From the NCBI GenBank assembly GCA_016198755.1, contig JACQIB010000004.1, forward strand, positions 1 to 64,000: DNA of 64,000 nucleotides, written 5' to 3'. Under the pieces are notes generated by a model, which was not told the origin of the DNA, did not search any database, and was given only the letters and a program-made list of their open reading frames with translations. Made by a program: the position numbers and the translations under genes. Origin of the DNA: Candidatus Aenigmatarchaeota archaeon. Its GTDB lineage: Archaea; Aenigmatarchaeota; Aenigmatarchaeia; Aenigmatarchaeales; JACQIB01. Every line of letters begins with the position of its first letter. The first letter of the stretch is position 1. This document shows, in pieces, positions 1 through 61,942 of this stretch.

Positions 1-435
1 CGCTGCCGGTTTAGCTGGAGTAGCTGCTGTTGGAGTTGGTTATGCTGCTCTTAGAAACTCCAACAATAGAAAATATGGAAACTCCTCTGCCGGCCCCGGA
101 GAAAGATTAAAAACTTTCTGGAACAATGTTGCAAAAGAGGAAAAGTATTATAATGAAGTTAGGGTTCCTGAAATAAATAAAAGGCAGGCTGAGATTGAAT
201 CTATTATAAAGGGGTTTCAGGAACAGGCTAGGAAGAAGAAAGAGAAGGAAGAACTGGAGAAGGTTGCTGAGCAGGTTGCCTGGGTGAATAAGCTGGCTGG
301 TTCAGGGAAATTATCTACTATGGAGGCTGCTAAGGAGTTGAGAGTTTTATCTGGGAGCGCTGGGATTGGGTATGAGAACTCCCAGAAACTGAGAAGCATG
401 AGCAATAAATTTTTAGAGATAGCAGAGGAGAATGA
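1..435 (+). repeat. Linker cassette shared by A, B and C (copy A)
   Basis: This stretch encodes the membrane segment and coiled coil of gene A. It aligns without gaps to the reverse strand of gene C (18437-18871) at roughly 95% identity by eye, with the first 90 or so bases identical. Bases from about 68 to 376 also match gene B (7677-7985) closely. The cassette lies exactly between the ectodomain and the variable C-terminus, so recombination here would swap C-terminal ends between paralogues. Confidence 0.85.
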
Positions 436-3226
436 TAACAGGCAGAAACCTGTTAAAGAATTGCAGAATATTATGGAACTATATAAATCCGGAAAGCTCT
501 CTGCTGAGGATCTGGCAGCAAAGCTCTATAAACTTTCTAAAAATCCTTACCTGAGCTCTGAGTTAAAGGGTGAGATACTTGGAATAAGAGAGGAGATTTT
601 GAAGGCGCTGAGAGAACAGGGGAGAGGAAAAGAGCTCTCTATGGAACCCGATATAGAAAGTGTAAATCAACCCAGTATTCTGGGGGGTATAACAGGTGCG
701 GTTACTGGCTTTGGAAGCTGGGTGGGAAACGGGATAAACTGGCTTGCAAACAATGTTGGCGAACCAATAAATAAGGGAATAGACTGGGCAAAGGGAAAAC
801 TCTGGGGATATGCAGGGAAAGCAATAGGTGCAGGAGCTGGGTTTGTAAACAGTTCTTTGAACCTTGTTTCTACAGTCCCGTTTGTTGGTTCATCTATAAG
901 CAATTCTATTAGAAACACTATTCTAACTTCCCTCTCTGCTATAAATTCCTCTTTAACAAGCATACAAGATTCAATCCTTTCCAAATCAGACTGGATTGAA
1001 AAGACTTCTGATAGTTTGTCTGTTGCTGGAATGGGAATGATAGGGGCTGGCACAGCATCTATGATGACTGGCTTTGGAACTCCATTTGCTTTTCCAACAA
1101 TGATTGCAGGAGCTGGCATGCTGGCTGCAGGCTCTGTAATGGATGTTTCTGTCTGGGGAGCTAAAGAGAGCGCTGGTAAAGCAAATGGATGGGACAGATT
1201 AAGGGGATTGTTTGGAGCTTTAATGTTTGTGCCCGAGATTGGGGCTGCCGGGAAGGTTGGAAGTGTAGGTAAATTGGTAAAAGGTGGAAGAATGTTGGAT
1301 GAATTATCCAATCTAAAATATATTACTAAGGTTATACAAGATGGGAAAGCATTCTACAGACCACATTACTTAAACTTTATAGATTCAGTTAGTGAAACAG
1401 CAGGCAATGCTGTTAGAGTAACAGACAATTTGATACGGAAACTATTCAATGATCAATTACTGAAAAATCCATTTCTGCGCAAGGATATAGAAATATTAAT
1501 TGAGGAATCTGGGGGGAAGAAGGTTCTTGCAGAGACATTTGTTAAAACCGGCGGCTGGTATCTTGGAAACAAAATAGAAAAAATAATATTTTACAGGAAA
1601 GCGATGGAAAAATTCATAAAAGAGATGAAGGTCGATTCTATAGAATCAATAAGAACAATAATAGACCACGAACTGGGGCATGCAGCCAGTGTGGAAAGCA
1701 GTAAGTTCTGGGAGTTTTTCGGCTTTCCTGTTTCGGTAAGAGATTGGATATTAAATAACATTGTGGCAGATCATCCTGGAGTTTTGGAAGAAATATTGAT
1801 GGGCATAAGAGCGGCTGATAATGATATGTCCAGAATAGATATTGTACATAAGATTGAGGATAGTCTAGGAGGCAAATATATGGAAAATTTTGATTTTGTT
1901 AAGCAGGCAATAAGAGAATTAGAAGGTAAAGCAGCTTCTTCTGGCGGACAGTTTAAGGAAGATTTGTTATATTCTGCCAGAAAACTTGAGGGGCTGATGG
2001 AAAAGTATAAGTTGGAAGGCAAAATATTACCTATATTGGGAGCATTGGGTTTGGGTTCTTTGTTTGGCGGGAAGAAAGATGGCAAAAGTGAAAATAATGT
2101 TGGGGGTTTTGAGGACTCTTCCCTAAAGCTCAGAAAAGATTCTCCAGAGGCTGCTAGGAGGGATGACGAATATAACTGGAAAAATATTCTGGCTGCCATT
2201 GGAGGTGTATTGGGAGCAATATTGTTGGGTGCAACAACAATAACATGTAATGGAGCATCGTTGTTATGTCCTGTATTAGAGCCCCCCATAACTGTGACAG
2301 GAACTGTTTTTGACAGTCTCCACAACCCGCTTTATTCCACAAGTGTGTTATTGCATGGTAGTGGGGATATTAATAAAACTCTTACACAACAGAGCGGTAA
2401 TTTTGATGTAATAGGTTATCATAATGGAACTATAACAGCAAAAGCGGAGCTAAAATACTTCCCCAATGGATTGAATTCCGCTGGCCCAGCAATAGAAATG
2501 CTAAAAATAAACAGCCATAATGCAGACTGGTCGGAAACACAAACTGAAACAGTTTCTAACGAGCAGCACGTAATGAATCAAACCTATACTATAGATTTCA
2601 CGTTCTCTCACGATCAGGGAGGAAATGCATATTATGGGTTGCAAAATTCTTATGATTACTGGAGAAACCACGAGACAGCAAATAGGATTTCAGCTTTCGT
2701 GAACGATCCTAGACCTGCTACAGCATATTATTGCCTCGATAAAGACAAGACATTACCTTATAAATGTACAGCAAGTAACGAAATTCACTTTTCAACTGCA
2801 TACCAGACATATGTTCTTGGACTCCACGAGTACGGTCACTCAATATCGCACAATTGGGGCCTGCCTGGTGGGCATGAAGAGCAACCAAATCCAATAGAAG
2901 AATCCTGGGCAGATTTCGTAATTGCATTGGTTCAAAATAATTCATATATAGGTGAGCCATACAATCTGGATATAAAAAATGCCAGAAATGCATCTGCATG
3001 GGGAAGGGAGTGGGCACTTGCAGGTGTAATGTGGGATTTGGAGCAGGAGAAACAGGGGGTTGTGTACGATACTTTAAAACCCAAGGATGATAAAGAAAAA
3101 ACAACTACACTGGAAATTTTGTATAATAAATTTAATAGCAAAGGCGGAATACCATCTAATGATATCTGCCGTATATTTAAAAAACATGGTTTTAATGCAA
3201 CTGCATGGGATCAAAGTTGTGTGTGA
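2..3226 (+). CDS. Polymorphic-toxin-like protein A with two metallopeptidase motifs (5' end outside window)
   Basis: The frame is open to the left edge, so the ectodomain and signal peptide lie outside the window; the first in-frame ATG (284) is internal, because the residues before it match paralogues B and C. Visible in order: a membrane segment (about 2-50), a charged coiled coil (about 100-430), hydrophobic glycine-rich stretches (690-1150) resembling pre-toxin regions of bacterial polymorphic toxins, a HELGH motif (1667-1681) followed by an acidic LEE stretch, another membrane segment (2180-2260), a carboxypeptidase-regulatory/CnaB-like beta domain (2285-2460), and a second motif HEYGH (2825-2839) followed by EESWAD as a likely third zinc ligand. 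The first peptidase domain resembles the C-terminus of gene D; the second is unique here. The toxin role is inferred from architecture; the zinc-peptidase motifs are seen directly. Confidence 0.75.
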   Translation, partial: AAGLAGVAAVGVGYAALRNSNNRKYGNSSAGPGERLKTFWNNVAKEEKYYNEVRVPEINKRQAEIESIIKGFQEQARKKKEKEELEKVAEQVAWVNKLAGSGKLSTMEAAKELRVLSGSAGIGYENSQKLRSMSNKFLEIAEENDNRQKPVKELQNIMELYKSGKLSAEDLAAKLYKLSKNPYLSSELKGEILGIREEILKALREQGRGKELSMEPDIESVNQPSILGGITGAVTGFGSWVGNGINWLANNVGEPINKGIDWAKGKLWGYAGKAIGAGAGFVNSSLNLVSTVPFVGSSISNSIRNTILTSLSAINSSLTSIQDSILSKSDWIEKTSDSLSVAGMGMIGAGTASMMTGFGTPFAFPTMIAGAGMLAAGSVMDVSVWGAKESAGKANGWDRLRGLFGALMFVPEIGAAGKVGSVGKLVKGGRMLDELSNLKYITKVIQDGKAFYRPHYLNFIDSVSETAGNAVRVTDNLIRKLFNDQLLKNPFLRKDIEILIEESGGKKVLAETFVKTGGWYLGNKIEKIIFYRKAMEKFIKEMKVDSIESIRTIIDHELGHAASVESSKFWEFFGFPVSVRDWILNNIVADHPGVLEEILMGIRAADNDMSRIDIVHKIEDSLGGKYMENFDFVKQAIRELEGKAASSGGQFKEDLLYSARKLEGLMEKYKLEGKILPILGALGLGSLFGGKKDGKSENNVGGFEDSSLKLRKDSPEAARRDDEYNWKNILAAIGGVLGAILLGATTITCNGASLLCPVLEPPITVTGTVFDSLHNPLYSTSVLLHGSGDINKTLTQQSGNFDVIGYHNGTITAKAELKYFPNGLNSAGPAIEMLKINSHNADWSETQTETVSNEQHVMNQTYTIDFTFSHDQGGNAYYGLQNSYDYWRNHETANRISAFVNDPRPATAYYCLDKDKTLPYKCTASNEIHFSTAYQTYVLGLHEYGHSISHNWGLPGGHEEQPNPIEESWADFVIALVQNNSYIGEPYNLDIKNARNASAWGREWALAGVMWDLEQEKQGVVYDTLKPKDDKEKTTTLEILYNKFNSKGGIPSNDICRIFKKHGFNATAWDQSCV

Positions 3227-3232
3227 TTATTA

Positions 3233-3964
3233 ATGATTAAAAAATTGCTTGGAAGCACTGTTCTCGTCTCTATTATAATACTAATATTTTACATCTATCT
3301 TAATTTACAGACCGAGAGCTCTGGCTACTGGAAGCCAGATAAAGCCGAACAGGCTAAACAGCTGGAAACACTAAAACAGATTTATACAGAACGTAACAAC
3401 TGGAGTGCTAGTATAGGTCTAACAGATCATGAAATTCCGAGACGAGTAATATCTGCGGATTATAAACGTATTTATGATAGAGAACTACTCAAAATAATTG
3501 ACGAAAAAACTGCCATTAAGATGGCTACAGATATTATGCAAAACAACCACTCCTATTTTGGCGTGCCTAAAGATCTTAAGATGAAAAACGAAGTTAGAAA
3601 TATCGGTTTTGGAACTTGGGTAATAACATATGAACCACAAACTTATAAGGATTTACAGATTTGTAATGCACAGGATAGTGGTGGGATGTCAATTGATGCA
3701 GACGGTGTTATAACAGATATAGGATTTGTTTGGTATCCCAACCTGACAGCCCCCACTAGACCTAAACTGACAGATGAACAGATAGGCAAAATAGTGGGAG
3801 CACCCCTCGGATGGCTACATGATGGGAAGCTCTGTATTTTTCCCAAGTGGCACCCTGAAGGGGAATATTGGACTTACCATTTGGCAAAGGATTATGGGGG
3901 CCCTATAATAGACACATGGACAGGGGAGACTTTGAAGGAACCGAGACCTCCAATAATAGATTAA
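3233..3964 (+). CDS. Membrane-anchored PepSY-like protein, candidate inhibitor/immunity protein of A
   Basis: This 243-residue protein starts 6 nt after gene A. Residues 5-25 form one hydrophobic N-terminal anchor; the rest is predicted outside the membrane. Two stretches look PepSY-like: about 85-165 (a TAIKMA helix, then GTWVITYE and IDADGVITDI) and about 180-235 (a helix, then WTYHL and IIDTWTGETL). PepSY domains are known from propeptides that inhibit metallopeptidases, which fits a position directly behind a gene with two zinc-peptidase motifs. An outward-facing inhibitor would protect the producing cell or its kin. The PepSY call is by eye and moderate; the immunity role is inference. 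It could instead be an unrelated lipid-facing accessory protein. Confidence 0.55.
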   Translation: MIKKLLGSTVLVSIIILIFYIYLNLQTESSGYWKPDKAEQAKQLETLKQIYTERNNWSASIGLTDHEIPRRVISADYKRIYDRELLKIIDEKTAIKMATDIMQNNHSYFGVPKDLKMKNEVRNIGFGTWVITYEPQTYKDLQICNAQDSGGMSIDADGVITDIGFVWYPNLTAPTRPKLTDEQIGKIVGAPLGWLHDGKLCIFPKWHPEGEYWTYHLAKDYGGPIIDTWTGETLKEPRPPIID

Positions 3965-4513
3965 GTGATATGCATGCTGTATGTATCGAAAATGCGGAAA
4001 GATCCTATGTTTGGTTTATTGAAAAAGCTGGATATGTCACTTACCCTAAACAGTGGAAATAAAACTGAAATAAATCTGGAGTATGAAAGGGAGTGGGACT
4101 ACAATTATTGGGACTACAATATAATGTATAATGCGAGCGCTATACTGAAAGATTTTAACACTATAAAACACCCGGAGCATATACATTCTTATATTTCTAT
4201 GGAAGAAATTAAATATAAAAATGTTAAGGATAAGATAATTAAGAATCTTACATGGCCAAGGCTTATTGGGATTGGCTTCGTGCCGAATAGGCGTGAGGCG
4301 TTGGCCGCAGCAGCAATTATAGTTAAAAGCAAAGCAATGAAAGACCAACCTAATCTAAAGCCGAATTTAAGTGGTTCTGATATATGTAAAATTTTAAAAG
4401 TAAATGAGAGAAAAATTAGAAAGCTAGTTTCTTCAATGGGTGGGAAGATGCTTTTAAAATCATCCCCACGTTCATGTAAAGTATCTTCATGTAAGGTACC
4501 TACGAAGTTTTAA
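3965..4513 (+). CDS. Hypothetical protein with a possible TFB-like cyclin fold
   Basis: A GTG start directly abuts the stop of the PepSY-like gene; ATG codons at 3974 and 3992 are alternatives. The 182-residue product has an unremarkable N-terminal half. Residues about 90-160 resemble the second cyclin repeat of transcription factor B: a helix, a conserved-looking NRREALAAAAII segment, then a helix-turn-helix-like SDICKILKVNERKIRKL. Full TFB has a zinc ribbon and two cyclin repeats, and these are absent. The DNA is more A+T-rich than that of gene A. It may be the third gene of module A, either a regulator or a decayed TFB fragment. The function is not established. Confidence 0.45.
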   Translation: MICMLYVSKMRKDPMFGLLKKLDMSLTLNSGNKTEINLEYEREWDYNYWDYNIMYNASAILKDFNTIKHPEHIHSYISMEEIKYKNVKDKIIKNLTWPRLIGIGFVPNRREALAAAAIIVKSKAMKDQPNLKPNLSGSDICKILKVNERKIRKLVSSMGGKMLLKSSPRSCKVSSCKVPTKF

Positions 4514-5751: not shown

Positions 5752-5838
5752 ATGCTCAGTAGTAATACGACAGACAACGTGCAGAGGATGCCTTTTTATT
5801 CCAGAAAAACCATTTCTCTTTTGGGGTTCAGAGTATGA
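5752..5838 (+). CDS. Short upstream reading frame coupled to gene B by ATGA overlap
   Basis: A 28-codon frame starts at the predicted transcript start (26 nt after the TATA-like box). Its stop overlaps the start of gene B as ATGA, the classic arrangement for translational coupling. In gene C the aligned leader is in frame with the main gene and would add 24 residues before the signal peptide. Whether the peptide is made, or the segment is simply a 5' leader, cannot be told from sequence. Confidence 0.35.
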   Translation: MLSSNTTDNVQRMPFYSRKTISLLGFRV

Positions 5839-8800
5839 ACAAATTATTTTGTATAGTGGCAGCTACCCTCTTCCTTTTAACTATACCAACTGTTTCCTTT
5901 GCCCTAGATCCTTCTATACCAGACAATAATTGGAGAGTTTTTGTTTCCCATGCGTACGGGGCAATAAACCCTGGTCCAGACTGGAATAAACTAAATTATA
6001 ATGACAGTTCTTATGTTTCGGTAATTAACGGAGAAGGGTGGACAACAAAAACGAGCGGAACAGAGCCGATGGGAACCACAGGCAGCGATTCAATTTACTT
6101 TAGAAAGTGGATAGACTGGAGCGGGCAGGATTTGTGGTTGAAATCTTGGGATGGGTATGGTGGGGAGTGTTTTGTTAACGAGCAAAGGGTAGCGGAGAAG
6201 CACTTCTATCTATCCAAATACCTGAAGCCAGGGAAAAACCTGATAGCCTGCTATATTATTGGACCAGGCATGGACGGTATTATGTCTACTTTTTATGGGA
6301 ACCTTATTACAGTTTCTGATAACCAGATAGCCTGGTCCAATGACTGGACAGACTGGTATCTTACTGACAGGCCTGTTACTACAGGAACAGAGGGCAAGTA
6401 TTATTATTGCTATAATGGGAATTGCAAGGAAACGGGTTTCTGGGCCTCTGCCTGGCCCTGGTCCACCGGCGGAGGAACGGCTTTCAAGAAATCAATCTAT
6501 CTTTCTAGCACAAACAACTCTTATCTTCTGGTTGGGTCGAACGTTGGCACTGGTGGGTTCTGGTGCTCTGTAAACGGAGATTGGACAAAACCGGATTCCC
6601 TTGTAGGCTTTTCCCAAAACACACATGAAAAGTACAATTTAATTGCTGATGTTTCCACAAAAGTAAAGCCTGGCTTGAATATAGTAACCTGCTTTATCTC
6701 CACTTATTCTGAACCAAATCCCTATCCAAAGGGTTTTAAAAAGTTTGATATGAATTTTGTGCAGTTGCCCGTTAAATCTGATATAACTGGACTGGCAGAA
6801 TATTCTGTTCCGATAGATGATGCAACAATAACTGCTTTGGTTTCCGGTTCTGGCAATACTACAGTATATGCTGAGCTGTTAAAGGGAACACGGTCTATAG
6901 ATAAGATAGAAACAGATACTGTTCTGGCTGGTACAGGAACAGTTAAACTAACATTGGATGTTTCAAAGGATAAAGCTGTCCAGTCCAGCAGGAATACATG
7001 GAAATACTATGTTGTAAACCATCTCAATCCTGTTCCCAGCTCAGACTGGTATAAAATTGGTTTCGATGCAGAATCCTGGGGAGATACTGATATGCCTACA
7101 TCTGCTGGAGGAGGGCCACTATTTATAAGGAAAATATTATATTTAGAAAAGCCCATTGATATTAAACTGAAAGCATGGGAGGGATATGCTGGATATTGTT
7201 TCGTAAATGAAAACAGAGTGGAGGGGCAGAATATACAGATAGGGCAATACCTAAGGGCAGGGGAGAATGTTATTGCATGTTCAATCTGGGGTCCGGGGAG
7301 GGACGGGATAACAACAACTTTCTATGGAGAACCTGTTCTACCACCTACCTATACTGTTTTATCCAATAGTTTTGGAGATTGGTTTATTGTTAACAGCACC
7401 GAAAGTCCAATTCTTTCCCTTACTGAACCAAAAAAGTATTCTGTTAAAATAACAGCTGTTTATAATGAGTATGGGATTTCCAAATCTGCAAACTACCCAA
7501 TCGAGTTTACAGAAACCCCAATTGTTCTGCCAATAACTGGAAACCCGTTTGTTCAGGATACTGGATCGGGCGGTAACACAGGAACAAGTTCTAGTTCCAG
7601 TTCTTCTGCAATACCGCTTGCTTTAGGTTTAACAGCAGTGGGTGCTGTTGGCGCTGGGTATGTTGCTCTGAATGGAAGGAAATATGGAAACTCCTCTGCC
7701 GGCCCCGGAGAAAGATTAAAAACTTTCTGGAACAATATTGGAAAAGAGGAAAAGTATTATAATGAGATTAGGCTACCTGAAATAAATAAAAGGCAGGCAG
7801 AGATTGAGTCTATTATAAAAGGGTTTCAGGAACAGGCTAAAAGAAAGAAAGAAGCGGAGGAACTGGAGAAGGTTGCTCAGCAGGTTGCTTGGGTGAATAA
7901 ACTGGCCGGCTCTGGAAAGTTATCCACTATTGAGGCTGCTAAGGAGTTTAGGTTATTGGCTGGGACTGCTGGGATTGGGGCTGGAGCTTCCAGCGCTCTC
8001 TGGCAGGCTAGCTCAAATTTATTGGAGGAACAAACCGTCAAACCCCCAAAAAATAACCAGAGCTACCTATACTCCACATCATCTACTACAGCAGTCTATG
8101 ATCCATATTTGGAACAAGGCCCCACAAGTGCAGAATACCTGTCGAGCGGAATCAATTGGTTTGTTAATGCCATGTGGGATAAGTTTGACTGGGTTACTGG
8201 GAAAGCAACAGGATTTGCAAAGGATGTTTACAATACTCTAAAGCCACTTCCGCTAATAGGTCCACTTGTAAGCTGGGCTGGTCCTCCAGTAGCCGGCACT
8301 GTTTATTGGGCATATGATACGGCGGACAATTACATATATGCTAACAGGAATACTATAGCCGGGGTTAGTGTTGGGCTTAGCGTGACTGGGATAGGGTTTA
8401 TGGTCATTAGCATGGCTGCTGCCCCTGAGGCTGGAGCAGCGGCTGGGCCTTATGGGCTTGCATTTGACACTAGTTTGTTTGCTATCGGAGCTATAGCAAC
8501 TGCAGCTGGGGGTGTTATAGATGTGGCTCTTGGAAATTCCTATCTCAGAAGAAAGGAGAGAGTAGAGGGTACTGTACTTTTGATTAGCGGTTTCATGAGC
8601 TTTATACCTAGTGGGGCAGTAGAGAGAAAAGGACTGGAAATTATTGCAGAAAATACACTGAAACAGATTGGAAAAGAGGGTTCTGTAAGGCTTGTCAGTA
8701 GATGGGGGAAATATGCAGAATGGGCTGCACTATACCTGAAACATAACGGGAGGGCTGTTACAGAGGAGGAGATAGAAATGCTTGTCAAGAGCCGCATAGG

Positions 8801-9617
8801 GTATTTGAAAACCCTGAACAATCCGGAGCTGAATGCAAAAATAGCTCAGTTGGATACAATGGATCCGTTTATGACTCCGGCTAGGAGAAAATTGTTGCTG
8901 GAGGATGTGTTTGAGAGTGATATGACCATAAACATAATTGGAAATATAGACGAGTCTATTTTGAAGGGTATATCTAATAAATACGGACACGACGTTGCAG
9001 AGTTGATAAGGCTTGACGCTAAAACAATGGGAAGGAAGCTTACAGAGGCTGAGGTGAATATTCATGCGAGATCACTCAACTATTTATTAAAAAATGGGTT
9101 TCAGATAAATGAAGTTGAAAGATTCTTGTCAAATCAGATGAGTAGTGCCGAAAGAAAAGTATTTTTAGAAAAGGTAAAACCATTAGAGAACACCATAGAA
9201 GAAATAAGAAATCCAGCCTTTACAAAAACTCCAGATAAGATTTTCGGTAATGTTATAATAGAAGAAAAAGCTATTACAAAAGAAGGACTTATTATTAGAG
9301 ACGTAGAAGATTTGATGAATGAATTAAAAGGTGCGAGGGAACAACTAAAACCAAATGAAGCAGCTATAGGTAAAGCTTATAATAAGCCTATATATGTTAC
9401 AGATGGTTATCATAAGATTATAAGCTATGATGCTAGGAAAGGTATATGGAAAGCCAATACAAACAATTTTATAGCTGATATGAGAGGGTTTTTAGAAGAT
9501 ACACGTGCTCAGCATATAGATGAAATATATATAACTATAAAAGAAAACAATATAGAAAAGACATTTCGTGTATTTAGAGGTATTAGAAGAGAAGTGTTGT
9601 CTGAGGTGATTGTATAA
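5835..9617 (+). CDS. Polymorphic-toxin-like protein B, unknown C-terminal effector
   Basis: The 1260-residue product starts with a signal peptide (1-23) identical to that of C. The ectodomain has three related jelly-roll-like units (about 28-155, 160-300, 385-510), each with a tryptophan-rich core and paired cysteines. The linker PFVQD is at 571-575, followed by Ser-rich sequence and a membrane segment (about 590-612). Then come the charged coiled coil shared with A and C (about 615-720), a hydrophobic glycine/alanine-rich pre-toxin-like stretch (about 835-925), two helical YG...GRKLTE-type units (about 955-1000 and 1045-1090), and a C-terminal domain of about 140 residues that I do not recognise. 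From about 9100 the DNA becomes visibly A+T-richer, suggesting that the end was acquired. The stop overlaps the next start by 1 nt. Confidence 0.75.
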   Translation: MNKLFCIVAATLFLLTIPTVSFALDPSIPDNNWRVFVSHAYGAINPGPDWNKLNYNDSSYVSVINGEGWTTKTSGTEPMGTTGSDSIYFRKWIDWSGQDLWLKSWDGYGGECFVNEQRVAEKHFYLSKYLKPGKNLIACYIIGPGMDGIMSTFYGNLITVSDNQIAWSNDWTDWYLTDRPVTTGTEGKYYYCYNGNCKETGFWASAWPWSTGGGTAFKKSIYLSSTNNSYLLVGSNVGTGGFWCSVNGDWTKPDSLVGFSQNTHEKYNLIADVSTKVKPGLNIVTCFISTYSEPNPYPKGFKKFDMNFVQLPVKSDITGLAEYSVPIDDATITALVSGSGNTTVYAELLKGTRSIDKIETDTVLAGTGTVKLTLDVSKDKAVQSSRNTWKYYVVNHLNPVPSSDWYKIGFDAESWGDTDMPTSAGGGPLFIRKILYLEKPIDIKLKAWEGYAGYCFVNENRVEGQNIQIGQYLRAGENVIACSIWGPGRDGITTTFYGEPVLPPTYTVLSNSFGDWFIVNSTESPILSLTEPKKYSVKITAVYNEYGISKSANYPIEFTETPIVLPITGNPFVQDTGSGGNTGTSSSSSSSAIPLALGLTAVGAVGAGYVALNGRKYGNSSAGPGERLKTFWNNIGKEEKYYNEIRLPEINKRQAEIESIIKGFQEQAKRKKEAEELEKVAQQVAWVNKLAGSGKLSTIEAAKEFRLLAGTAGIGAGASSALWQASSNLLEEQTVKPPKNNQSYLYSTSSTTAVYDPYLEQGPTSAEYLSSGINWFVNAMWDKFDWVTGKATGFAKDVYNTLKPLPLIGPLVSWAGPPVAGTVYWAYDTADNYIYANRNTIAGVSVGLSVTGIGFMVISMAAAPEAGAAAGPYGLAFDTSLFAIGAIATAAGGVIDVALGNSYLRRKERVEGTVLLISGFMSFIPSGAVERKGLEIIAENTLKQIGKEGSVRLVSRWGKYAEWAALYLKHNGRAVTEEEIEMLVKSRIGYLKTLNNPELNAKIAQLDTMDPFMTPARRKLLLEDVFESDMTINIIGNIDESILKGISNKYGHDVAELIRLDAKTMGRKLTEAEVNIHARSLNYLLKNGFQINEVERFLSNQMSSAERKVFLEKVKPLENTIEEIRNPAFTKTPDKIFGNVIIEEKAITKEGLIIRDVEDLMNELKGAREQLKPNEAAIGKAYNKPIYVTDGYHKIISYDARKGIWKANTNNFIADMRGFLEDTRAQHIDEIYITIKENNIEKTFRVFRGIRREVLSEVIV
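7677..7985 (+). repeat. Linker cassette shared by A, B and C (copy B)
   Basis: Direct copy of the cassette at 68-376 and inverted relative to gene C. It encodes the conserved KYGNSSAGPGERLKTFW start of the coiled coil. It is slightly more diverged than A and C are from each other. Confidence 0.8.
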
Positions 9618-10114
9618 TGTCTTACGATTTGATTTTTAAATTTAAATTTTATAGAAACGCGGTAGTAGATGTAGAGCAAATCATAAAAATTATTCTATCT
9701 GTTTTCCCCATAAAATTTACAAAATCCCCAGAATATATCGTTGTGTATTACGATGAAAAGTTTTGTAAGGACTTTCACATAAATTCTGAAAAGTATCTAT
9801 TTGAGCGGATAAATGAAGTTAAAAACCTCGGTTTAATTAGGGAGGTTGGTTTTGGATGTAGACTGTTAGGTAGACATTTTGATATAGATATTACAAAATA
9901 CAAACTTGGAGACAACATTAACAGCAATGTTTTCTTGTCGTCTGTCTCTAAGGCGTGGATTAAAGCTCCAATAGAAGAAAAGAAACAGTTTAATAACATG
10001 CTGAGAGTGTTAGAGAAAAGGCTTAAACCCGAAATTAAATCTCTAGACAATGATATAGCAAAGTATATGTTGGATAAAGTAGATAAGAACGGATTTATAA
10101 TAAAGCAAAGATAG
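9617..10114 (+). CDS. Small protein overlapping gene B, candidate immunity protein
   Basis: The start codon shares one base with the stop of gene B (TAATG), so the two are translationally coupled. The 165-residue product has no signal peptide or membrane segment, is rich in Lys, Ile and Asn, and matches no family I know. Tight linkage to an unrecognised C-terminal effector is the usual layout of toxin and immunity genes. The base composition is A+T-rich like the end of gene B, as if both arrived together. A degenerate copy of its last codons occurs at 11003. The immunity role is inference. Confidence 0.6.
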   Translation: MSYDLIFKFKFYRNAVVDVEQIIKIILSVFPIKFTKSPEYIVVYYDEKFCKDFHINSEKYLFERINEVKNLGLIREVGFGCRLLGRHFDIDITKYKLGDNINSNVFLSSVSKAWIKAPIEEKKQFNNMLRVLEKRLKPEIKSLDNDIAKYMLDKVDKNGFIIKQR

Positions 10115-10131: not shown

Positions 10132-11001
10132 ATGAAATCAAACCGAGGCAGAAGACCAAGATATAAGGCTCCATCAGGTGGTCACGGATCACATTTTAAG
10201 ATTTCTATGGGTAACACAGACTTTATTGCAGATATTGTACTTGACACGTTTAAAACACCGTCCGCCTTTGGTATTATAAATATAAAAATACACTCCAAAG
10301 AGTATTATTGTTATATTGTAAAGAAGTTCATAACAAAATTGCTAAGCATTACCTCTATAGCTGTTGATCATAATATAACTACAGCGTATCCTGTCAATAT
10401 GAAAATTGCAAATTATAAGGCAAAAATAAAACATATAACAGAATGGAAGAATAGTATTGAGGCGTGGATTACTGTACAAATATCAGAAGTTGGGCTTACT
10501 TTCTTCGCCTTAGACTACTATAAGAACCTATATAGAACTGGTAAATATTGTAATATTGCAATTTCAGCCTTTGCCTATCTATTAAGACCAGCTACAAACA
10601 ATGTAATAGCTGCTAGGGGAGGGAAGAGATATAGTACTAACGTAATGTGCGCTCTTCTACCTTATAGTATTTTGAATAAAAACGCATTTCCAGATGAGTA
10701 TTGGTTCCGAGGGCAGATAATAGATATTATAGAAGATGATAAAATTAAATTATTTAAACCAAAAAATAAATTATTTAAAATAAAAGTAGCCATTGTTAGT
10801 GGGAACCCTCTAGAAATCTGGGTATACGCTCTTAAGGATGCCATAGACGGTGAATTTAACATAGGGGATTATATATCAGGAATTATATGGATACAGGGAT
10901 TCTTGAACGAAATAAACTCTACTGGTGTAGATGCTTATATTACAGATGCAGAAAAGTTTAGTGTATTTCTTAATGAAATGTATACGAACAGAAATAAATG
11001 A
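10132..11001 (+). CDS. Hypothetical protein with possible OB-like C-terminus
   Basis: The 289-residue product begins 17 nt after the 165-residue gene, in the same A+T-rich tract. It has a basic N-terminus (RGRRPRYK) and no membrane segment. Residues about 190-260 look like a small beta barrel (FRGQIIDII, then strands, then GDYISGIIWIQG), which loosely recalls an OB fold. It is not assigned to a family. It probably belongs to module B, as a second accessory or spare immunity-like gene. Confidence 0.55.
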   Translation: MKSNRGRRPRYKAPSGGHGSHFKISMGNTDFIADIVLDTFKTPSAFGIINIKIHSKEYYCYIVKKFITKLLSITSIAVDHNITTAYPVNMKIANYKAKIKHITEWKNSIEAWITVQISEVGLTFFALDYYKNLYRTGKYCNIAISAFAYLLRPATNNVIAARGGKRYSTNVMCALLPYSILNKNAFPDEYWFRGQIIDIIEDDKIKLFKPKNKLFKIKVAIVSGNPLEIWVYALKDAIDGEFNIGDYISGIIWIQGFLNEINSTGVDAYITDAEKFSVFLNEMYTNRNK

Positions 11002-11002
11002 T

Positions 11003-11104
11003 ATGTTTGGTAAAATAGATGAGAAAGGCTTCATCTTATAATGATTATTTGAAACGCGGAGGTACTCCAGAAGGTATATGAAGGTGTAGAAATGAAATCA
11101 TAAC
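11003..11104 (+). pseudogene. Decayed remnant of a duplicated immunity-gene end
   Basis: A 12-codon frame (MFGKIDEKGFIL) resembles the end of the 165-residue protein (MLDKVDKNGFII). It is followed, as at the first copy, by a GAAGG...TAGAA stretch and ATGAAATCA, the first codons of the 289-residue gene, which here run into a stop. The segment reads as a remnant of a tandem duplication of the gene 3' end and the next gene 5' end. The match is short, so chance is not excluded. Confidence 0.4.
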
Positions 11105-11124
11105 AACATTTCCTTCTTTTGATT

Positions 11125-11132
11125 AGGTGATC
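11125..11132 (+). promoter_or_regulatory. Strong archaeal ribosome binding site
   Basis: AGGTGATC is complementary to the conserved 3' end of archaeal 16S rRNA and ends 3 nt before ATG 11136. It decides the start of the zinc-ribbon gene. Confidence 0.6.
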
Positions 11133-11135
11133 ACC

Positions 11136-11348
11136 ATGGAAAATCTTAAAGTTTTTGACAAAATTTTTGGAAGTAGATACACGCCACGTGAACGAAAGCT
11201 TATTTTAGAAGAACTAAGACAAGGTGCACATTACGAATGTATGCAAACTACGTGTGGATATAAATGGACATCAAAAGAAATAGAGATGTCTTGCCCTAAG
11301 TGCAAATCTATGGATATATATAAAATTAAGGGAAAAAATACCTCTTAG
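11136..11348 (+). CDS. Small zinc-ribbon protein
   Basis: The 70-residue product has a helical N-terminal half and a C-terminal zinc ribbon with four cysteines (Cys at about 36 and 41, then a CPKC pair). The start is ATG 11136, because a ribosome binding site AGGTGATC lies at 11125-11132; an upstream in-frame GTG lies inside that site. Zinc ribbons of this size bind nucleic acid or protein partners. It sits in the A+T-rich tail of module B. Function unknown. Confidence 0.6.
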   Translation: MENLKVFDKIFGSRYTPRERKLILEELRQGAHYECMQTTCGYKWTSKEIEMSCPKCKSMDIYKIKGKNTS

Positions 11349-11431
11349 GGAAGGGGCACTAACATACATACCTATACATGGTAAAATACACTGAATAATA
11401 TAACAAAAGACATAGATTTAAAGTGAAGATT

Positions 11432-11998
11432 ATGACTATGACTGCTAAAAACAAATTGATAAAAAATATTGAAGCTGCTATTAAAGAAGTTGCAAATAGC
11501 AAAGATAAAGACTTTGTGAAAAAAATAAAGACAGAAGGAATAGATTATCTTGTTTTCCCTGCTAAGAGAGAAAATAAAGAAAAATCATTTTGGGGTAGGT
11601 CTCTTCTTGTTGACCACTACGTTTTTACCCTTAGAGATGCTGCAGAAGAGGTTGGTGAAAAATCCCCACTGTCGAAAAATTGCAGTAGACTGTTACAAGA
11701 AGGAAAAGTTGGGGTTTTTGTAGAGATAGACTTGAAAATATTCTATGATAAATTCAAGACAATATCAGAAGATAGTGGATGGATTGTGAAAAGTCAGTTG
11801 TGGGAAATAGAACCGAAGGGATGGCGTGCAACTATAAATAATCCTAAAGTCGGCGACACTAGTATTGCATTTTTAAAATGGGCAATAATTTCAGCAGCAA
11901 CATTTAGAAGTTTTGATGATGTTCTGAGAGAAAAAGATATGACTCCTGTTGAAGTTAAAACTCTGTTAAACCTTGACAAAAAATACAATAAATTATGA
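11432..11998 (+). CDS. Hypothetical protein of module B
   Basis: The 188-residue product is soluble, rich in Lys and Glu, with no motif I recognise. Start choices are GTG 11423, ATG 11432 and ATG 11438; 11432 is taken as a compromise. It ends about 170 nt before the module-end element at 12172 and shares the A+T-rich composition of the region. It may be cargo of module B; no function is proposed. Confidence 0.5.
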   Translation: MTMTAKNKLIKNIEAAIKEVANSKDKDFVKKIKTEGIDYLVFPAKRENKEKSFWGRSLLVDHYVFTLRDAAEEVGEKSPLSKNCSRLLQEGKVGVFVEIDLKIFYDKFKTISEDSGWIVKSQLWEIEPKGWRATINNPKVGDTSIAFLKWAIISAATFRSFDDVLREKDMTPVEVKTLLNLDKKYNKL

Positions 11999-16082: not shown

Positions 16083-16457
16083 TTATTTGAAGCGTTTTTT
16101 TATAATATTCAATGTATTTTCTGTTATTTTGCCTTTTGTTTTCAAGTCCTTTTTAGCAGCCCTATAAAATAATTTGAATAACAAATAGGATTTTTTATCC
16201 TTAGGTGGATTTATAATACTATCCAGTGTTTTTTGGGATTCACCACGACGCTTTAATTGATCAACATATTCCTCAAATCTTTCGTAACCTTCTATTATTG
16301 CTTTTTGTCTTTCTATATCAAATGATATGGCTTTTAAATGATCCCTCAAGACACCCAATGCAGCTTCTTCTTTGCTCAGTCTCTTATTTATAGCATCCGT
16401 TAAAATAAAACTTCCATACCATGGCTTAAAGGTTTTAGGTGTATTATACTTAGACAT
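16083..16457 (-). CDS. Small protein overlapping gene C, candidate immunity protein
   Basis: The start lies inside the last codons of gene C (8 nt overlap), so translation is coupled. The 124-residue product is charged and mostly helical (KEEAALGVLRDHLKA, then a central coiled helix), with no signal peptide. It is unrelated to the small genes behind A and B, as expected if each partners a different effector end. A+T-rich. The immunity role is inference from position only. Confidence 0.55.
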   Translation of the reverse strand: MSKYNTPKTFKPWYGSFILTDAINKRLSKEEAALGVLRDHLKAISFDIERQKAIIEGYERFEEYVDQLKRRGESQKTLDSIINPPKDKKSYLLFKLFYRAAKKDLKTKGKITENTLNIIKKRFK

Positions 16458-19400
16458 TTTCTATCACACTCCTCATAGTTTTTATAGTTTTATCAAGATA
16501 TGTTTTCGTGGCCGGGGAAAGTCTGCTTATTATATCATTCAGTTGATGATTTACAATATCATCACTTAGATTTAAGGTCTTTAAGTATGCAATATCAGAA
16601 ATATTTTCTTCTCCAATGGATAATATTTTATCGGATTTATTATAAAAATATTTTATATTAGATAACAATGACTGTACAGTCTCACTCCACCCCTTTACCA
16701 TTCTCGGATCTTCTTTAAGTACAAGATAATCGGCAATCAAGCGTTCTTCTATGGTTTCTGTAAGCTCCTTTTTGGCTGCTTCGGATATATCCAACTTATC
16801 CACCATTTTAGCAATATCATTTTCTGTCGGTATCTTTCCAGCAGCTCTTAGCTCTTCTTTCAATATTTCCTTTGTCTCGTGGCGCATTCCAAATTCGAAT
16901 CCGTCTTCAGATAGTTTGGCAGCTTTTATAGGGTTTACACCCAATATTTTTGTTCCCTTTACAACTCCAAAAGAAGCATCTAGTCCCTCGCTGTCTACAA
17001 TATAATTTGTAAAGCTTTTGTCCGATAATATGCGCTCTATTCTATTGTTGGATATTCCGGATTTCGAGAGCTTTGAAGCAAATCTAGCTAATCGCCCAGC
17101 TTCTGTTGTTGTCAATTTCCTTCCAGTTTTTAGAACAATACGTCCCACAAGTTCGACAGCTTCCTCTCCGTTTGCTTTTATTAGCGTTTGAAGACCTTTG
17201 CGCCCAATCATTTCAACAAGTAACTTTACACCCGATTTTGTTGGCATTTCTATAACGCCACCTATTGGCATAAGATCTGCCATATCCCAAGCATCTAGAA
17301 CCAATCCAGCACCCATAAACTCTACAATCGCCTGTTCAGCATGAATTTCACTTATGCCTAACTGCTGGGAAATTACAAGAGGTGCATCTTCCCCATATCG
17401 CATAACAGCATCATCTACTATCATCTGATCAGTTGGATTTCTTTTATAGGGTTCAATAAATGTGTAATAGAAATTATTTGAAATTGTTGACACCCTATCT
17501 GATACGGTCTTTCCTACATTTTTTACTATGTTAAACATTCCAAAAAATCCATAATTTTGATAAGAATCATTAAATACATTGTCTAGATTAGACAAAAGCT
17601 CTATATATTTTTCCCTACTTCCAACTGTTCCTTTATCTATAGTATTTTTCAGCCAGCTGTCTAATAAAGTCTTTATTTTGCCGTATTTTTCTTTGCTAAC
17701 TAAGCCATTATTAATAAAGAAACTAGAAAGATTGCCGGCGTTCTTTATTGAGAGCTTATCCCCAGACCTCTCTGCCAATAACTCAGCAGCTACAATTTGT
17801 TCGAGCTCGCGCTTTGTAAGTTTAACATCTGGATGTTCTGTGTATCTTTCTATTAAATAAAGTTGCTGCATAACAAAATAATTAACTTTAGAATTAAATT
17901 GTTCTACACCTGCTTTAACTCTTATTAAATCGTCCGCCTCAAGTTCATCAAGCCATGTATTGGTGTAGTATCTTGCGCTATCCAACTGAAGATCCCATCG
18001 GTTCTGATAACGGTTCTGATGTATGTACAGGTGTGCCATCTCATGTGCTATAGTTGATTTAGTTACAAAACTATAAACATCTACAGTTTCTTGTATCTTA
18101 TCATCTACCTCTCGGTATATCTTATCTGTTGGAGTTTTCAATACAATGAAATTCAGACTTGCCTCAGCATTTCTATCATCTCCAATATTTCCTAAGGCCA
18201 CAAAATCAGGCTTTATACCAAAATTAGCTTCTTGTTTCTCTATTTCACGTTCCAATATGCTACGCTCTTCTTGTGGTAGTGTACTTAGTGGTTTCCAGCC
18301 TTCTATCAAAGCATGAAGTCCATCGCTAGCATGAAATATGGCGCCTTTTGTCCAATCTAGAATATTGCTTACCCCATTCATAATGTTTTGCGGTATACTA
18401 GAGATTCCATTAATATTAATCGTATTTCTGTTGTTTTCATTATCCTCTGCTATCTCTAAAAATTTATTGCTCATGCTACTAAGTTTCTGGGAGTTCTCAT
18501 ACCCAATCCCAGCGCTCCCAGATAAAACTCTCAACTCCTTAGCAGCCTCCATAGTAGATAATTTACCTGAGCCAGCCAGTTTATTCACCCAGGCAACCTG
18601 CTCAGCAACCTTCTCCAGTTCTTCCTTCTCTTTCTTTTTCTTAGCCTGTTCCTGAAACCCCTTTATAATAGATTCAATCTCAGCCTGCCGTTTCTTTATT
18701 TCCGGAACCCTAATCTCATTATAATACTTTTCCTCTTTTCCAATATTGTTCCAGAAAGTTTTTAATCTTTCTCCGGGGCCGGCAGAGGAGTTTCCATATT
18801 TTCTATTGTTGGAGTTTCTAAGAGCAGCATAACCAACTCCAACAGCAGCTACTCCAGCTAAACCGGCAGCGAGCGGGATTGCAGAAGAACTAGAATCTGT
18901 TCCTGCGCTGTTAGAGCCGCCACCGGAATCCTGAACAAACGGGTTTCCTGTTATTGGCAGAACAATTGGGGTTTCTGTTATTTCCAGGTTGTAATCCTTG
19001 CTCTTGCTAATCCCATACTCATTGTAAACAGCTGTTATTTTAACAGAGTATTTTCCTGTCTGGTTAATATTCAAAGTTAACGGAACTTCTGTTTGCCCGT
19101 CCAAATCCAGAGTATCTTCTATGGGCAGAGCAACACTCTTCCCGTTTTCAAACAGTTCGGCATAAACTGTTGCATTCCCTGCACCGTTAACCAAAACTGT
19201 TATTGTTGGATCTTCAACTGTAACAGAATAGCTGGAAAGCCCTAAAATATCCAGAGACTTTTGCACAAAACTCATGTCAAATTTCTTGAAACCACCCGGT
19301 CTGGGGTTTGGTTCTGCATAAGTGGAGACCCAGCAATTTATATTATTTATGCCTGGCTTTACCTTACTGGAAATGTCAGCCATAAGGTTGTACTTTTCGT

Positions 19401-20217
19401 GGGTGTTTTGTGAAAATCCCACTGTTTCTCCAGTCCAGTCACCGTTTACAGAACACCAAAATTTATCTTTACTCCCAATATCGGCGATATTTGTTCCAAG
19501 CAACAGGTAAGAGTTCTCTGTGCTGGAAATATAGAAGGATTTCTTGAAAGCAGTCCCGCCCCAATTAGCCCATGGCCATGCAGAATTTTCAAAACAGCCA
19601 TAAGATTCCTCTGGATAATCATAACAGAAATAGAATTTGGCTTCTGTTCCTGTATCAATAGGCCTGTTATTAACAAACCAGTGATTCCAGTCATTGCTCC
19701 ATGCCAATTGAGAATCGGAGACTGGAGTAAACTGGCCGTAAAAATAGGCTTGTTTATTGTTCCAGTAATCTGCACCCTTGCCCCAGATTGAACAGGCAAC
19801 TAAATTGATTCCTGTCTTTAGATAGTCTGATAAATGTATATCTTGGGAGTCGACTTTCTGGTCATTGATATAGCAGGTTCCTGCATATCCCTCCCAGGCT
19901 CTGAACCATAAATCCTCCCCATTCCAGTTTATTGTTTTCCTGAAGTAAACTGGATCGCTGCCCGTAATTCCTATATTTTTTATTCCGTCTCCAACCCTGT
20001 CTACCCATACTGTATAGCTATCTCCTGGACAATTGCCAGAGCTATAGGAAGAATCATCATAATTTATTTTATACCAATCGGGTCCGGGAGTCATGTATCC
20101 ACAGCTTCCATGGGAAACAAACATTCTCCAGCTGTTATCAGTGGAAAAAGCAAAGGAAACAGTTGGTATAGTTAAGAGAAAAAGGGTAGCTGCCACTATA
20201 CAAAATAATTTGTTCAT
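16450..20217 (-). CDS. Polymorphic-toxin-like protein C with HEMAH metallopeptidase domain
   Basis: The 1255-residue product has the same 23-residue signal peptide as B, which is why 20217 is chosen, although a TATA box 26 nt before ATG 20289 would allow 24 more residues. Two jelly-roll-like ectodomain units (about 25-320) and one Ig-like strand set precede PFVQD (426-430), a membrane segment (about 450-470) and the coiled coil shared with A. A zinc-peptidase domain follows: HEMAH at 725-729 and DELEAD about 30 residues later as third ligand, homologous to the end of protein E. Then come a hydrophobic stretch (about 950-985), a GRKLTT unit (about 1030) and a last domain containing HETKE. The final 300 nt are A+T-rich. 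The stop is overlapped by the next gene. Confidence 0.75.
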   Translation of the reverse strand: MNKLFCIVAATLFLLTIPTVSFAFSTDNSWRMFVSHGSCGYMTPGPDWYKINYDDSSYSSGNCPGDSYTVWVDRVGDGIKNIGITGSDPVYFRKTINWNGEDLWFRAWEGYAGTCYINDQKVDSQDIHLSDYLKTGINLVACSIWGKGADYWNNKQAYFYGQFTPVSDSQLAWSNDWNHWFVNNRPIDTGTEAKFYFCYDYPEESYGCFENSAWPWANWGGTAFKKSFYISSTENSYLLLGTNIADIGSKDKFWCSVNGDWTGETVGFSQNTHEKYNLMADISSKVKPGINNINCWVSTYAEPNPRPGGFKKFDMSFVQKSLDILGLSSYSVTVEDPTITVLVNGAGNATVYAELFENGKSVALPIEDTLDLDGQTEVPLTLNINQTGKYSVKITAVYNEYGISKSKDYNLEITETPIVLPITGNPFVQDSGGGSNSAGTDSSSSAIPLAAGLAGVAAVGVGYAALRNSNNRKYGNSSAGPGERLKTFWNNIGKEEKYYNEIRVPEIKKRQAEIESIIKGFQEQAKKKKEKEELEKVAEQVAWVNKLAGSGKLSTMEAAKELRVLSGSAGIGYENSQKLSSMSNKFLEIAEDNENNRNTININGISSIPQNIMNGVSNILDWTKGAIFHASDGLHALIEGWKPLSTLPQEERSILEREIEKQEANFGIKPDFVALGNIGDDRNAEASLNFIVLKTPTDKIYREVDDKIQETVDVYSFVTKSTIAHEMAHLYIHQNRYQNRWDLQLDSARYYTNTWLDELEADDLIRVKAGVEQFNSKVNYFVMQQLYLIERYTEHPDVKLTKRELEQIVAAELLAERSGDKLSIKNAGNLSSFFINNGLVSKEKYGKIKTLLDSWLKNTIDKGTVGSREKYIELLSNLDNVFNDSYQNYGFFGMFNIVKNVGKTVSDRVSTISNNFYYTFIEPYKRNPTDQMIVDDAVMRYGEDAPLVISQQLGISEIHAEQAIVEFMGAGLVLDAWDMADLMPIGGVIEMPTKSGVKLLVEMIGRKGLQTLIKANGEEAVELVGRIVLKTGRKLTTTEAGRLARFASKLSKSGISNNRIERILSDKSFTNYIVDSEGLDASFGVVKGTKILGVNPIKAAKLSEDGFEFGMRHETKEILKEELRAAGKIPTENDIAKMVDKLDISEAAKKELTETIEERLIADYLVLKEDPRMVKGWSETVQSLLSNIKYFYNKSDKILSIGEENISDIAYLKTLNLSDDIVNHQLNDIISRLSPATKTYLDKTIKTMRSVIENV
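18437..18871 (-). repeat. Linker cassette shared by A, B and C (copy C)
   Basis: Minus-strand counterpart of 1-435, gap-free and about 95% identical by eye. With copies A and B in the opposite orientation, recombination between them could invert the intervening DNA or convert one gene end to another. Confidence 0.85.
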
Positions 20218-20310
20218 ACTGCTGGCCCCAAAAGAGAAATAGTTTTTTGGGAATAAAAAGGCGTTCTTTGTATTCGTCAATTGCTGCATAGATAAAGTGG
20301 GGGAGAAATC

Positions 20311-29500: not shown

Positions 29501-29719
29501 TCTGTGCACTTCATAAACTTTTTTCACAGAGGATTCAAGAACGTTTCCGTTCTCATCAAAAGAGTAAACAGAATCCCCAGGGAGAATATTCTCTATATTT
29601 ACAACTCCTGTGGGAGTGGAAACTTCTGTCCCAGGAAGGAAACAGCCGCCGCCAGCGCGTGCAAAAGCTGGTGCAGCTATAAAAAGCAATAAAAGTAAAG
29701 GGAGCAGGAGTTTTTTCAT
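26504..29719 (-). CDS. Tim44-like membrane protein interrupted by four tandem Hint (intein-like) domains
   Basis: The 1071-residue product has a signal peptide (1-20) ending in ARAGGG, four Hint domains of exactly 132 residues each (26-157, 161-292, 299-430, 434-565), a Gly/Ser/Pro linker, a beta-sandwich (about 585-755), one membrane segment (about 785-815) and a cytoplasmic Tim44-like domain (about 830-1060). Each Hint copy starts with CFLPGT, has TAEHPF (block B), EHT.F (block F) and ends AVHN, separated only by KGG or KGGGGG. Bacterial Tim44-like proteins often begin with a signal peptide and a Gly-rich stretch, so the Hint array appears to sit within that stretch. RBS GGTGA before ATG 29719; 12 nt behind the DUF350-like gene, probably one operon. 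Confidence 0.85.
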   Translation of the reverse strand: MKKLLLPLLLLLFIAAPAFARAGGGCFLPGTEVSTPTGVVNIENILPGDSVYSFDENGNVLESSVKKVYEVHREGYYILRTKSSIVNVTAEHPFLTDKGYIEAQNLNIGNEVFILSEGKLVKEAISSSEYIPNPTVAYNLEVSGEHTFFSNSFAVHNKGGCFLPGTAVETLSGPKNIETLSVGESVYSFDPSGKIASSTVNKIYKVHREGYYIVKISSSEVKATAEHPFLTDKGYIETQYLSAGSTIFILNNEKLSPEKILSVQYVPEPTYAYNLEVSGEHTYFADKFAVHNKGGGGGCFLPGTQVSGSSGPVDIENLKAGDSVFSFDSNGNIVESRVNKVFSVHREGYYNLKTESTEVNATAEHPFLTDNGYVETQYLSVGETVFILESNSLVPQKILSITYIPIPTTAYNLEVDNEHTFFANSFAVHNKGGCFLPGTEISTVSGPVNIETLKKGDKIYSFDENRNVKESAVKTIYKVHRDGYFSLKTKTSEVNATAEHPFLTNTGYKEVQELKTGETIYILKNGRLVGEKIIFNNFIPEPTVAYNLEVDGEHTFFANSFAVHNKGGGGGGGSSSPPPPVSFYFPIILSAQGWNFSNISNGISGIVLEKTQISGATNTKNIVFPSTDKALILRSGSSGSSSSVGIATNDPFILRGNGIEWIQLDENGGINFTFDLLDLRGEEKLYTTTYSGLTGGWYKARADLSNFTGNTVRIRFSQHPSSSTGGWYTLIDNITITQNNVTLFPVLNGDFERNSSVPVSIYAGTVPANSPFLPPPGPAEVIFNIIVSLFFGLFFLVFIGVFIYAIVKGRSSGGGWATMDQPAPRGKIDEKAERAHRLLNYLHMLWKEWDERKLVQLTRSYFTQLQTAWQDRDYTEVEGLMMPDIYKEHTEELEQMIKQNERNELRNLGIEDVKIIIIRNHADKKKNEFVAWISAHAQDVILRDSSVPDWYAKAHGIKQEKIVTKQTKSENYEGQKVKGKLSITINKTTVVEEVGDGNENTFTEPKVIRGDDDVYPFEEFWTFLWDAKESKWKIKEITQIRQGSKILSDDNFDELSTPEQMKWYYEHERAV
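28025..29644 (-). repeat. Four tandem Hint-domain repeats
   Basis: Units at 29249-29644, 28844-29239, 28430-28825 and 28025-28420, each 396 nt. All keep Cys1, the TxxH histidine and the terminal His-Asn. The residue after Asn is always Lys, not Cys, Ser or Thr, as in type B bacterial intein-like domains. They differ enough from each other to be old duplications. Confidence 0.85.
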
Positions 29720-61869: not shown

Positions 61870-61942
61870 TTGTCCCCCCATCTATTTGTATAGACAGTTT
61901 TAAAAACCTATCTTTTGTGGCAACACTGCTCTGGAAACCGCA

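What the first reader, a model, noticed from the sequence alone, without database searches (positions are those of the whole stretch)
1664..3964. Two zinc-peptidase domains in one protein followed by a membrane PepSY-like inhibitor candidate
Protein A carries HELGH and HEYGH motifs separated by a membrane segment and a CnaB-like domain. Six nt later a membrane-anchored protein with two PepSY-like units begins. PepSY domains are known peptidase-inhibiting propeptide modules, so this could be a secreted protease with an anchored immunity inhibitor, a pairing I do not know from archaea.
Basis: partly seen in the sequence, partly recalled or inferred. Interest (0 to 1): 0.75.

Follow-up and report, generated by a model that had tools for sequence, protein, structure and literature searches.

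The report
Archaeal surface protease with paired inhibitor candidate
A tiny archaeon carries a family of large surface proteins with interchangeable tails; one tail is a zinc protease that lacks the built-in inhibitor found in its relatives, and the very next gene encodes a membrane-anchored protein resembling that missing inhibitor, which would be a new way to build a toxin-immunity pair if confirmed.

Summary
Protein A has two HExxH domains (window 1667 and 2825), split by a membrane helix and a small beta domain. A 243-aa membrane-anchored protein starts 6 nt after its stop.

A, 5835-9617 and 16450-20289 share the N-terminal stem (A and the third: 94% DNA identity), then diverge abruptly. 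Each is followed at once by a different small gene. This is polymorphic-toxin/immunity anatomy, in a phylum Aenigmatarchaeota genome. The first zinc domain belongs to a four-member family of the same kind of protein. The second is distantly M36 (fungalysin)-like. Its two nearest archaeal relatives carry an FTP-PepSY propeptide inhibitor in the same chain; A does not, and its neighbour resembles that propeptide.

Direct Pfam PepSY/FTP searches fail. Support is indirect: alignment to the cis propeptides beats shuffles (0/3,000 for one, 0.001-0.004 for the other), and similarity to YpeB-like archaeal proteins. Only the first unit is significant. Both structure predictions were too poor to use.

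Best reading (0.45): a protease whose propeptide is encoded in trans as an anchored inhibitor, probably its immunity protein.

The parts
2..3226 (+). Protein A, truncated at its N-terminus by the contig start; full length 1,521 aa when joined to contig C5 (start codon at C5:191767)
   Evidence: open frame to the contig edge; exact 71-nt overlap of the C5 end with the C2 start; joined frame without internal stops
2..430 (+). conserved stem: TM anchor (first ~40 nt) and charged coiled region, shared with 5835-9617 and 16450-20289
   Evidence: 77-91% protein identity; DNA identity 94% and 81%, ending abruptly
803..1330 (+). hydrophobic glycine-rich 'pre-toxin'-like region shared with protein 55687-61881 and with proteins in two related genomes
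   Evidence: 32-38% identity hits at residues 268-447
1454..2071 (+). first zincin-like domain (HELGH at 1667-1681); family of four, not in Pfam
   Evidence: alignment with 50813-55633, a C3 protein and a G003 protein; H, E, H and third-ligand E invariant; no Pfam match
2186..2242 (+). membrane helix, predicted to place the second peptidase on the outer face
   Evidence: hydropathy 2.19 over 19 residues, positive charges before it
2282..2580 (+). small beta domain (CarboxypepD_reg/CnaB-like)
   Evidence: weak Pfam match E 0.004; colinear with the region preceding the peptidase in G020/G033
2581..3226 (+). second zincin domain, M36 (fungalysin)-like, HEYGH at 2825-2839, downstream E in EESWAD; no propeptide in cis
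   Evidence: 30% identity to the G020 protein, E 3e-5, which matches PF02128 weakly (E 9e-4)
3233..3964 (+). 243-aa membrane-anchored partner, candidate trans-encoded FTP-PepSY propeptide / inhibitor / immunity protein
   Evidence: 6 nt after the stop of A; TM residues 5-23; similarity to cis propeptides and YpeB-like proteins
3500..3742 (+). FTP/PepSY1-like unit of the partner
   Evidence: hhalign E 3.7e-5 against YpeB-like archaeal proteins (one-to-one comparison); 0 of 3,000 shuffles reach the scores with G020, G035, G023
3755..3961 (+). possible second PepSY-like unit of the partner
   Evidence: colinear with the cis propeptide but not significant alone
5835..9617 (+). paralogue B with the same stem and a different C-terminus
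9617..10114 (+). 165-aa gene overlapping the stop of B (TAATG), candidate immunity gene
   Evidence: no confident relative in 155 other genomes of the phylum
16450..20289 (-). paralogue C with the same stem, a third zincin type (HEMAH...ELEAD) and a different C-terminus
16083..16457 (-). 124-aa gene overlapping the end of C by 8 nt, candidate immunity gene

Best explanation
A is a modular surface-anchored protein of the polymorphic-toxin type: signal peptide, ectodomain, membrane anchor, hydrophobic region, an internal zincin (perhaps a releasing or processing peptidase), then a second membrane helix and a C-terminal M36-like zinc peptidase on the outer face. The M36-like peptidase has lost the FTP-PepSY propeptide that its relatives carry in the same chain. 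The next gene supplies a similar module in trans, anchored in the membrane on the same side, where it caps the peptidase and keeps it harmless to the producer, and perhaps also helps it fold. Shown: gene order, spacing, motifs, stem sharing with variable tails, small genes after each of three paralogues, cis propeptides in relatives. Inferred: homology of the partner to that propeptide (moderate), topology, inhibition, immunity role and toxicity.
For: Three stem-sharing paralogues diverge abruptly and each is followed at +6, -1 or -8 nt by a different small gene. The nearest archaeal relatives of the second peptidase, chosen by the peptidase alone, have FTP and PepSY matches upstream in cis. 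The partner aligns colinearly with those propeptides (28% and 25% over about 117 residues); local alignment beats 3,000 shuffles for G020 (p<1/3,000) and has p 0.001-0.004 for G033; it ranks first and second of 360 pieces from the same genome. The first relatives found by the partner itself are YpeB/FTP-like proteins. Both partner and peptidase are predicted on the outer face and carry cysteines. Precedent: SleB and YpeB come from one operon, YpeB is membrane-anchored with PepSY domains, and it may hold SleB inactive (PMC13393411).
Against: No direct Pfam, NCBIfam or PDB match of the partner to PepSY or FTP. The profile of the two cis propeptides gives the partner only E 1.7, no better than the best of 5,000 shuffles. 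The second unit is not significant, and a Burkholderia M36-like propeptide shows nothing. Only one genome carries the pair. Both models are unusable. A toxic role rests on anatomy alone.
Confidence: 0.45

Rival explanations
1. The partner is a trans-acting propeptide used as a foldase or latency factor for an ordinary surface protease (nutrition, host attachment, surface remodelling); there is no toxin and no immunity.
For: FTP-PepSY modules act as chaperone/inhibitors in cis in M4/M36 peptidases (established knowledge); the G020 and G033 relatives are plain secreted peptidases; YpeB and SleB need each other for stability.
Against: Does not explain why stem-sharing paralogues with unrelated tails each have a different small gene directly downstream.
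Confidence: 0.25
2. The partner is an immunity or accessory protein of an unrelated fold, and the PepSY resemblance is chance or convergence.
For: No direct profile match; second unit not significant; immunity genes of polymorphic toxins are very diverse (PMC3482391).
Against: Agreement of two separate routes: the partner's own best hits are YpeB/FTP-like, and the propeptides of the peptidase's relatives match it.
Confidence: 0.22
3. The partner inhibits the first (HELGH) peptidase, or neither; the two genes are merely adjacent.
For: Only 6 nt separate the genes, but the pair is known from one genome; both peptidase domains are in the same protein.
Against: In three other proteins with the HELGH-type domain no comparable small gene follows (window 49670-50794 is convergent to 50813-55633), and that domain is predicted on the inner face.
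Confidence: 0.08

Closest known systems
Fungalysin (M36) and thermolysin (M4) peptidases with FTP-PepSY propeptide
   Same: HExxH and downstream Glu; nearest archaeal relatives of A's tail have FTP and PepSY matches and the same order of domains
   Different: A has no propeptide in cis; the candidate is a separate, membrane-anchored protein encoded downstream rather than upstream of the catalytic domain
YpeB with SleB (Bacillus spores)
   Same: operon partner with N-terminal membrane anchor and extracytoplasmic PepSY domains, thought to hold an enzyme inactive (PMC13393411)
   Different: SleB is a peptidoglycan hydrolase, not a peptidase; no evolutionary link between the operons was shown
Polymorphic toxin systems (PMC3482391), predicted also in archaea (PMC8416519 citing Makarova et al. 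2019)
   Same: constant N-terminal stem, abrupt variable C-terminus, small gene directly downstream, internal metallopeptidase before the tail, PT-HINT protein in the same neighbourhood
   Different: none of the described trafficking domains was found; internal zincins are not the PVC-metallopeptidase (no HExxHxxQ); an extracellular M36-like tail with a propeptide-like partner was not found among the toxins described there
DPANN double-PepSY family cls.004634 (PMC6393860)

Membership tests
M36 fungalysin family (PF02128) | HExxH plus downstream glutamate third ligand | tested here: met
   HEYGH and EESWAD aligned with HEYGH/HEGLAD of relatives
M36 fungalysin family (PF02128) | match to the family profile above cut-off | tested here: not met
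   A: none; G020 relative: E 9e-4, below the curated cut-off
M36 fungalysin family (PF02128) | FTP-PepSY propeptide in the same chain | tested here: not met
   no such region in A; present in the relatives
PepSY / FTP / YpeB-like proteins | direct Pfam profile match | tested here: not met
   no match for the 243-aa protein or its halves; none in the whole genome at E<=10
PepSY / FTP / YpeB-like proteins | sequence similarity to accepted members through intermediates | tested here: inconclusive
   YpeB-like intermediates hmmsearch E 0.001, hhalign E 3.7e-5 for a one-to-one comparison; first unit only
PepSY / FTP / YpeB-like proteins | alpha-beta fold of PepSY units | tested here: inconclusive
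   AlphaFold2 models of very low confidence (pLDDT 44 and 37); their helix-then-strands pattern occurs twice but cannot be relied on
Polymorphic toxin systems | conserved N-terminal stem with abruptly different C-termini among paralogues | tested here: met
   94% and 81% DNA identity up to about residues 575-596, then none
Polymorphic toxin systems | small immunity-like gene directly after the variable tail | tested here: met
   three of three stem-sharing paralogues, spacing +6, -1, -8 nt; protection itself not testable here
Polymorphic toxin systems | recognised trafficking or delivery domain | tested here: not met
   only signal peptide, lectin/ConA-like ectodomains and a membrane anchor seen
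Polymorphic toxin systems | toxicity and neutralisation | not testable with these tools
   needs an experiment

The most novel reading that the evidence does not exclude
A zymogen taken apart: an M36-like peptidase tail shed its in-chain FTP-PepSY propeptide, which lives on as a separately encoded, membrane-anchored immunity protein, so that the protease is safe on the producing cell and unrestrained once it leaves it.
Probability: 0.3. Interest if true: 0.75.

Novelty: new variant of a known kind. Interest (0 to 1): 0.55.

Why it matters
PepSY-like proteins confined to DPANN archaea have been proposed to inhibit proteases that nobody has identified (PMC6393860). Here a candidate inhibitor sits 6 nt from a candidate target, and relatives with both domains fused indicate which of the two peptidases it would cap. 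If true it would show how an immunity protein can arise from a propeptide, and give an experimentally small pair (a peptidase domain of about 310 aa and an ectodomain of about 215 aa) for studying conflict or host contact in a group that is mostly uncultured.

Tried and rejected
Direct PepSY/FTP identification by Pfam, NCBIfam and PDB sequence search: negative. AlphaFold2 of the 243-aa protein (3-row alignment) and of a read-through chain of the HEYGH tail plus the partner, used as a stand-in for a co-fold (A's stop and the partner's start are in the same frame): both of very low confidence, so no fold search was run. Relatives in viral contigs: none. Named genomes: the whole of A found none; the peptidase alignment found the two Aenigmatarchaeota records already known. 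M36-like proteins on rhizobial and Burkholderia plasmids: tail and propeptide in one chain, no trans arrangement seen; the Burkholderia propeptide does not resemble the partner. Internal duplication of the partner (unit 1 versus unit 2): not significant. Relatives of the other two small genes in the phylum: only weak hits, not followed. The idea that the HELGH peptidase is the inhibitor's target was rejected because that domain recurs without such a neighbour.

Full report
What is there. The window is the start of contig C2 of an 0.89-Mb genome. The two relatives of the second peptidase that could be named, from the same class, are Candidatus Aenigmatarchaeota, so the organism belongs to that DPANN phylum. 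Protein A is an open frame from the contig edge to 3226. The end of contig C5 overlaps the start of C2 by exactly 71 nt. Joining them gives a 1,521-aa protein without internal stops that begins with a signal peptide. The join is an assembly inference; it falls inside the stem that three genes share, which is where an assembler would break.

Domains of A. Hydropathy shows the signal peptide, one membrane helix at residues 442-462 and one at 1176-1194. Between them lie a hydrophobic glycine-rich region shared with another window protein and with two related genomes, and the HELGH domain. The HELGH domain belongs to a family of four: A, window 50813-55633, a contig C3 protein and a protein of genome G003, all large proteins with a membrane anchor. 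H, E, H and a later E are invariant, and the family is not in Pfam. Beyond the second helix come a small beta domain and the HEYGH domain, which ends the protein. With the signal peptide cleaved and two helices crossing, the HEYGH domain would face outward and the HELGH domain inward, if the hydrophobic region does not add an odd number of crossings. The cysteine pairs of the HEYGH part agree with an outer position (inference).

The HEYGH domain. In 156 genomes of the phylum, a single-sequence search and a two-row profile find relatives only in G020 and G033, of one genus. The G020 protein matches M36 weakly (E 9e-4), and FTP and PepSY weakly, in the order FTP, PepSY, beta domain, peptidase. 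A is colinear with it from the beta domain onward (30% identity) and has a membrane helix where the propeptide would be.

The 243-aa neighbour. It starts 6 nt after A's stop, has one N-terminal membrane helix, and has codon-position composition like that of A. Its own search finds, at the margin (E 0.007-0.009), proteins from three genomes that match YpeB_PepSY, DUF4901 and FTP models. The sharper test is independent of that search: the G020 and G033 propeptides were chosen only because their peptidase matches A. The neighbour aligns with them over residues 127-243. Local alignment scores beat all 3,000 shuffles for G020 and give p 0.001-0.004 for G033; among 360 protein pieces of the same genome it ranks first and second. 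Against this, direct profiles fail, a profile of the two propeptides gives E 1.7, the second unit is not significant alone, and a Burkholderia propeptide gives nothing. I take homology to FTP-PepSY as likely, not shown.

The wider system. A, B (5835-9617) and C (16450-20289) share the stem and then diverge at once: DNA identity 94% between A and C and 81-82% for the others, falling to nothing near residue 575-596. Directly after each comes a different small gene (243, 165 and 124 aa) at +6, -1 and -8 nt. C and 55687-61881 carry a third zincin type, HEMAH/HEMGH with ELEAD. A neighbouring protein carries four pretoxin-HINT matches, the best at E 9e-49. In polymorphic toxins an internal metallopeptidase usually releases the tail, and C-terminal metallopeptidases can be toxins (PMC3482391). 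The anatomy fits, but no known delivery domain was found and no activity can be shown here.

How it most likely works. The HEYGH peptidase is held inactive on the producer's surface by the anchored neighbour, as a propeptide would do in cis and as YpeB is thought to do for SleB. The internal HELGH zincin may cut the protein to release the tail (inference). What the peptidase attacks is unknown: a competitor, a host archaeon or an S-layer are all possible.

Limits. One metagenome-assembled genome, one example of the pair, shallow alignments, and unusable structure models. The literature search covered only open-licence papers; Makarova et al. 2019 on archaeal polymorphic toxins was not held, so a published mention of this kind of locus cannot be excluded.

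Noticed in passing
window 26504-29719 (-): Protein with four successive pretoxin-HINT (PT-HINT) matches and a Tim44-like region, beside the polymorphic array.
   Followed up: partly
window 21903-26507 (+): Secreted 1,534-aa protein with an M6 (immune inhibitor A) peptidase match and Ig-like domains.
   Followed up: no
window 55687-61881 (-) and 50813-55633 (-): Two further giant anchored proteins (Laminin_G_3 and DUF2341 ectodomains) that share a similar segment before their zincin domain; in 50813-55633 it gives a weak full-length CdiA_C match (E 0.15, not significant).
   Followed up: partly
window 3965-4513 (+): A possible further gene starting directly at the end of the 243-aa gene, low G+C and with weak coding signal; no family.
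   Followed up: no
window 10132-11998 (+): Two low-G+C genes of unknown family following B and its 165-aa gene, possibly more cassette genes.
   Followed up: no
L021, L022, L023: FTP/YpeB-like N-termini on 673-684-aa membrane proteins next to a von Willebrand-like protein in three genomes of one family of the phylum.
   Followed up: partly
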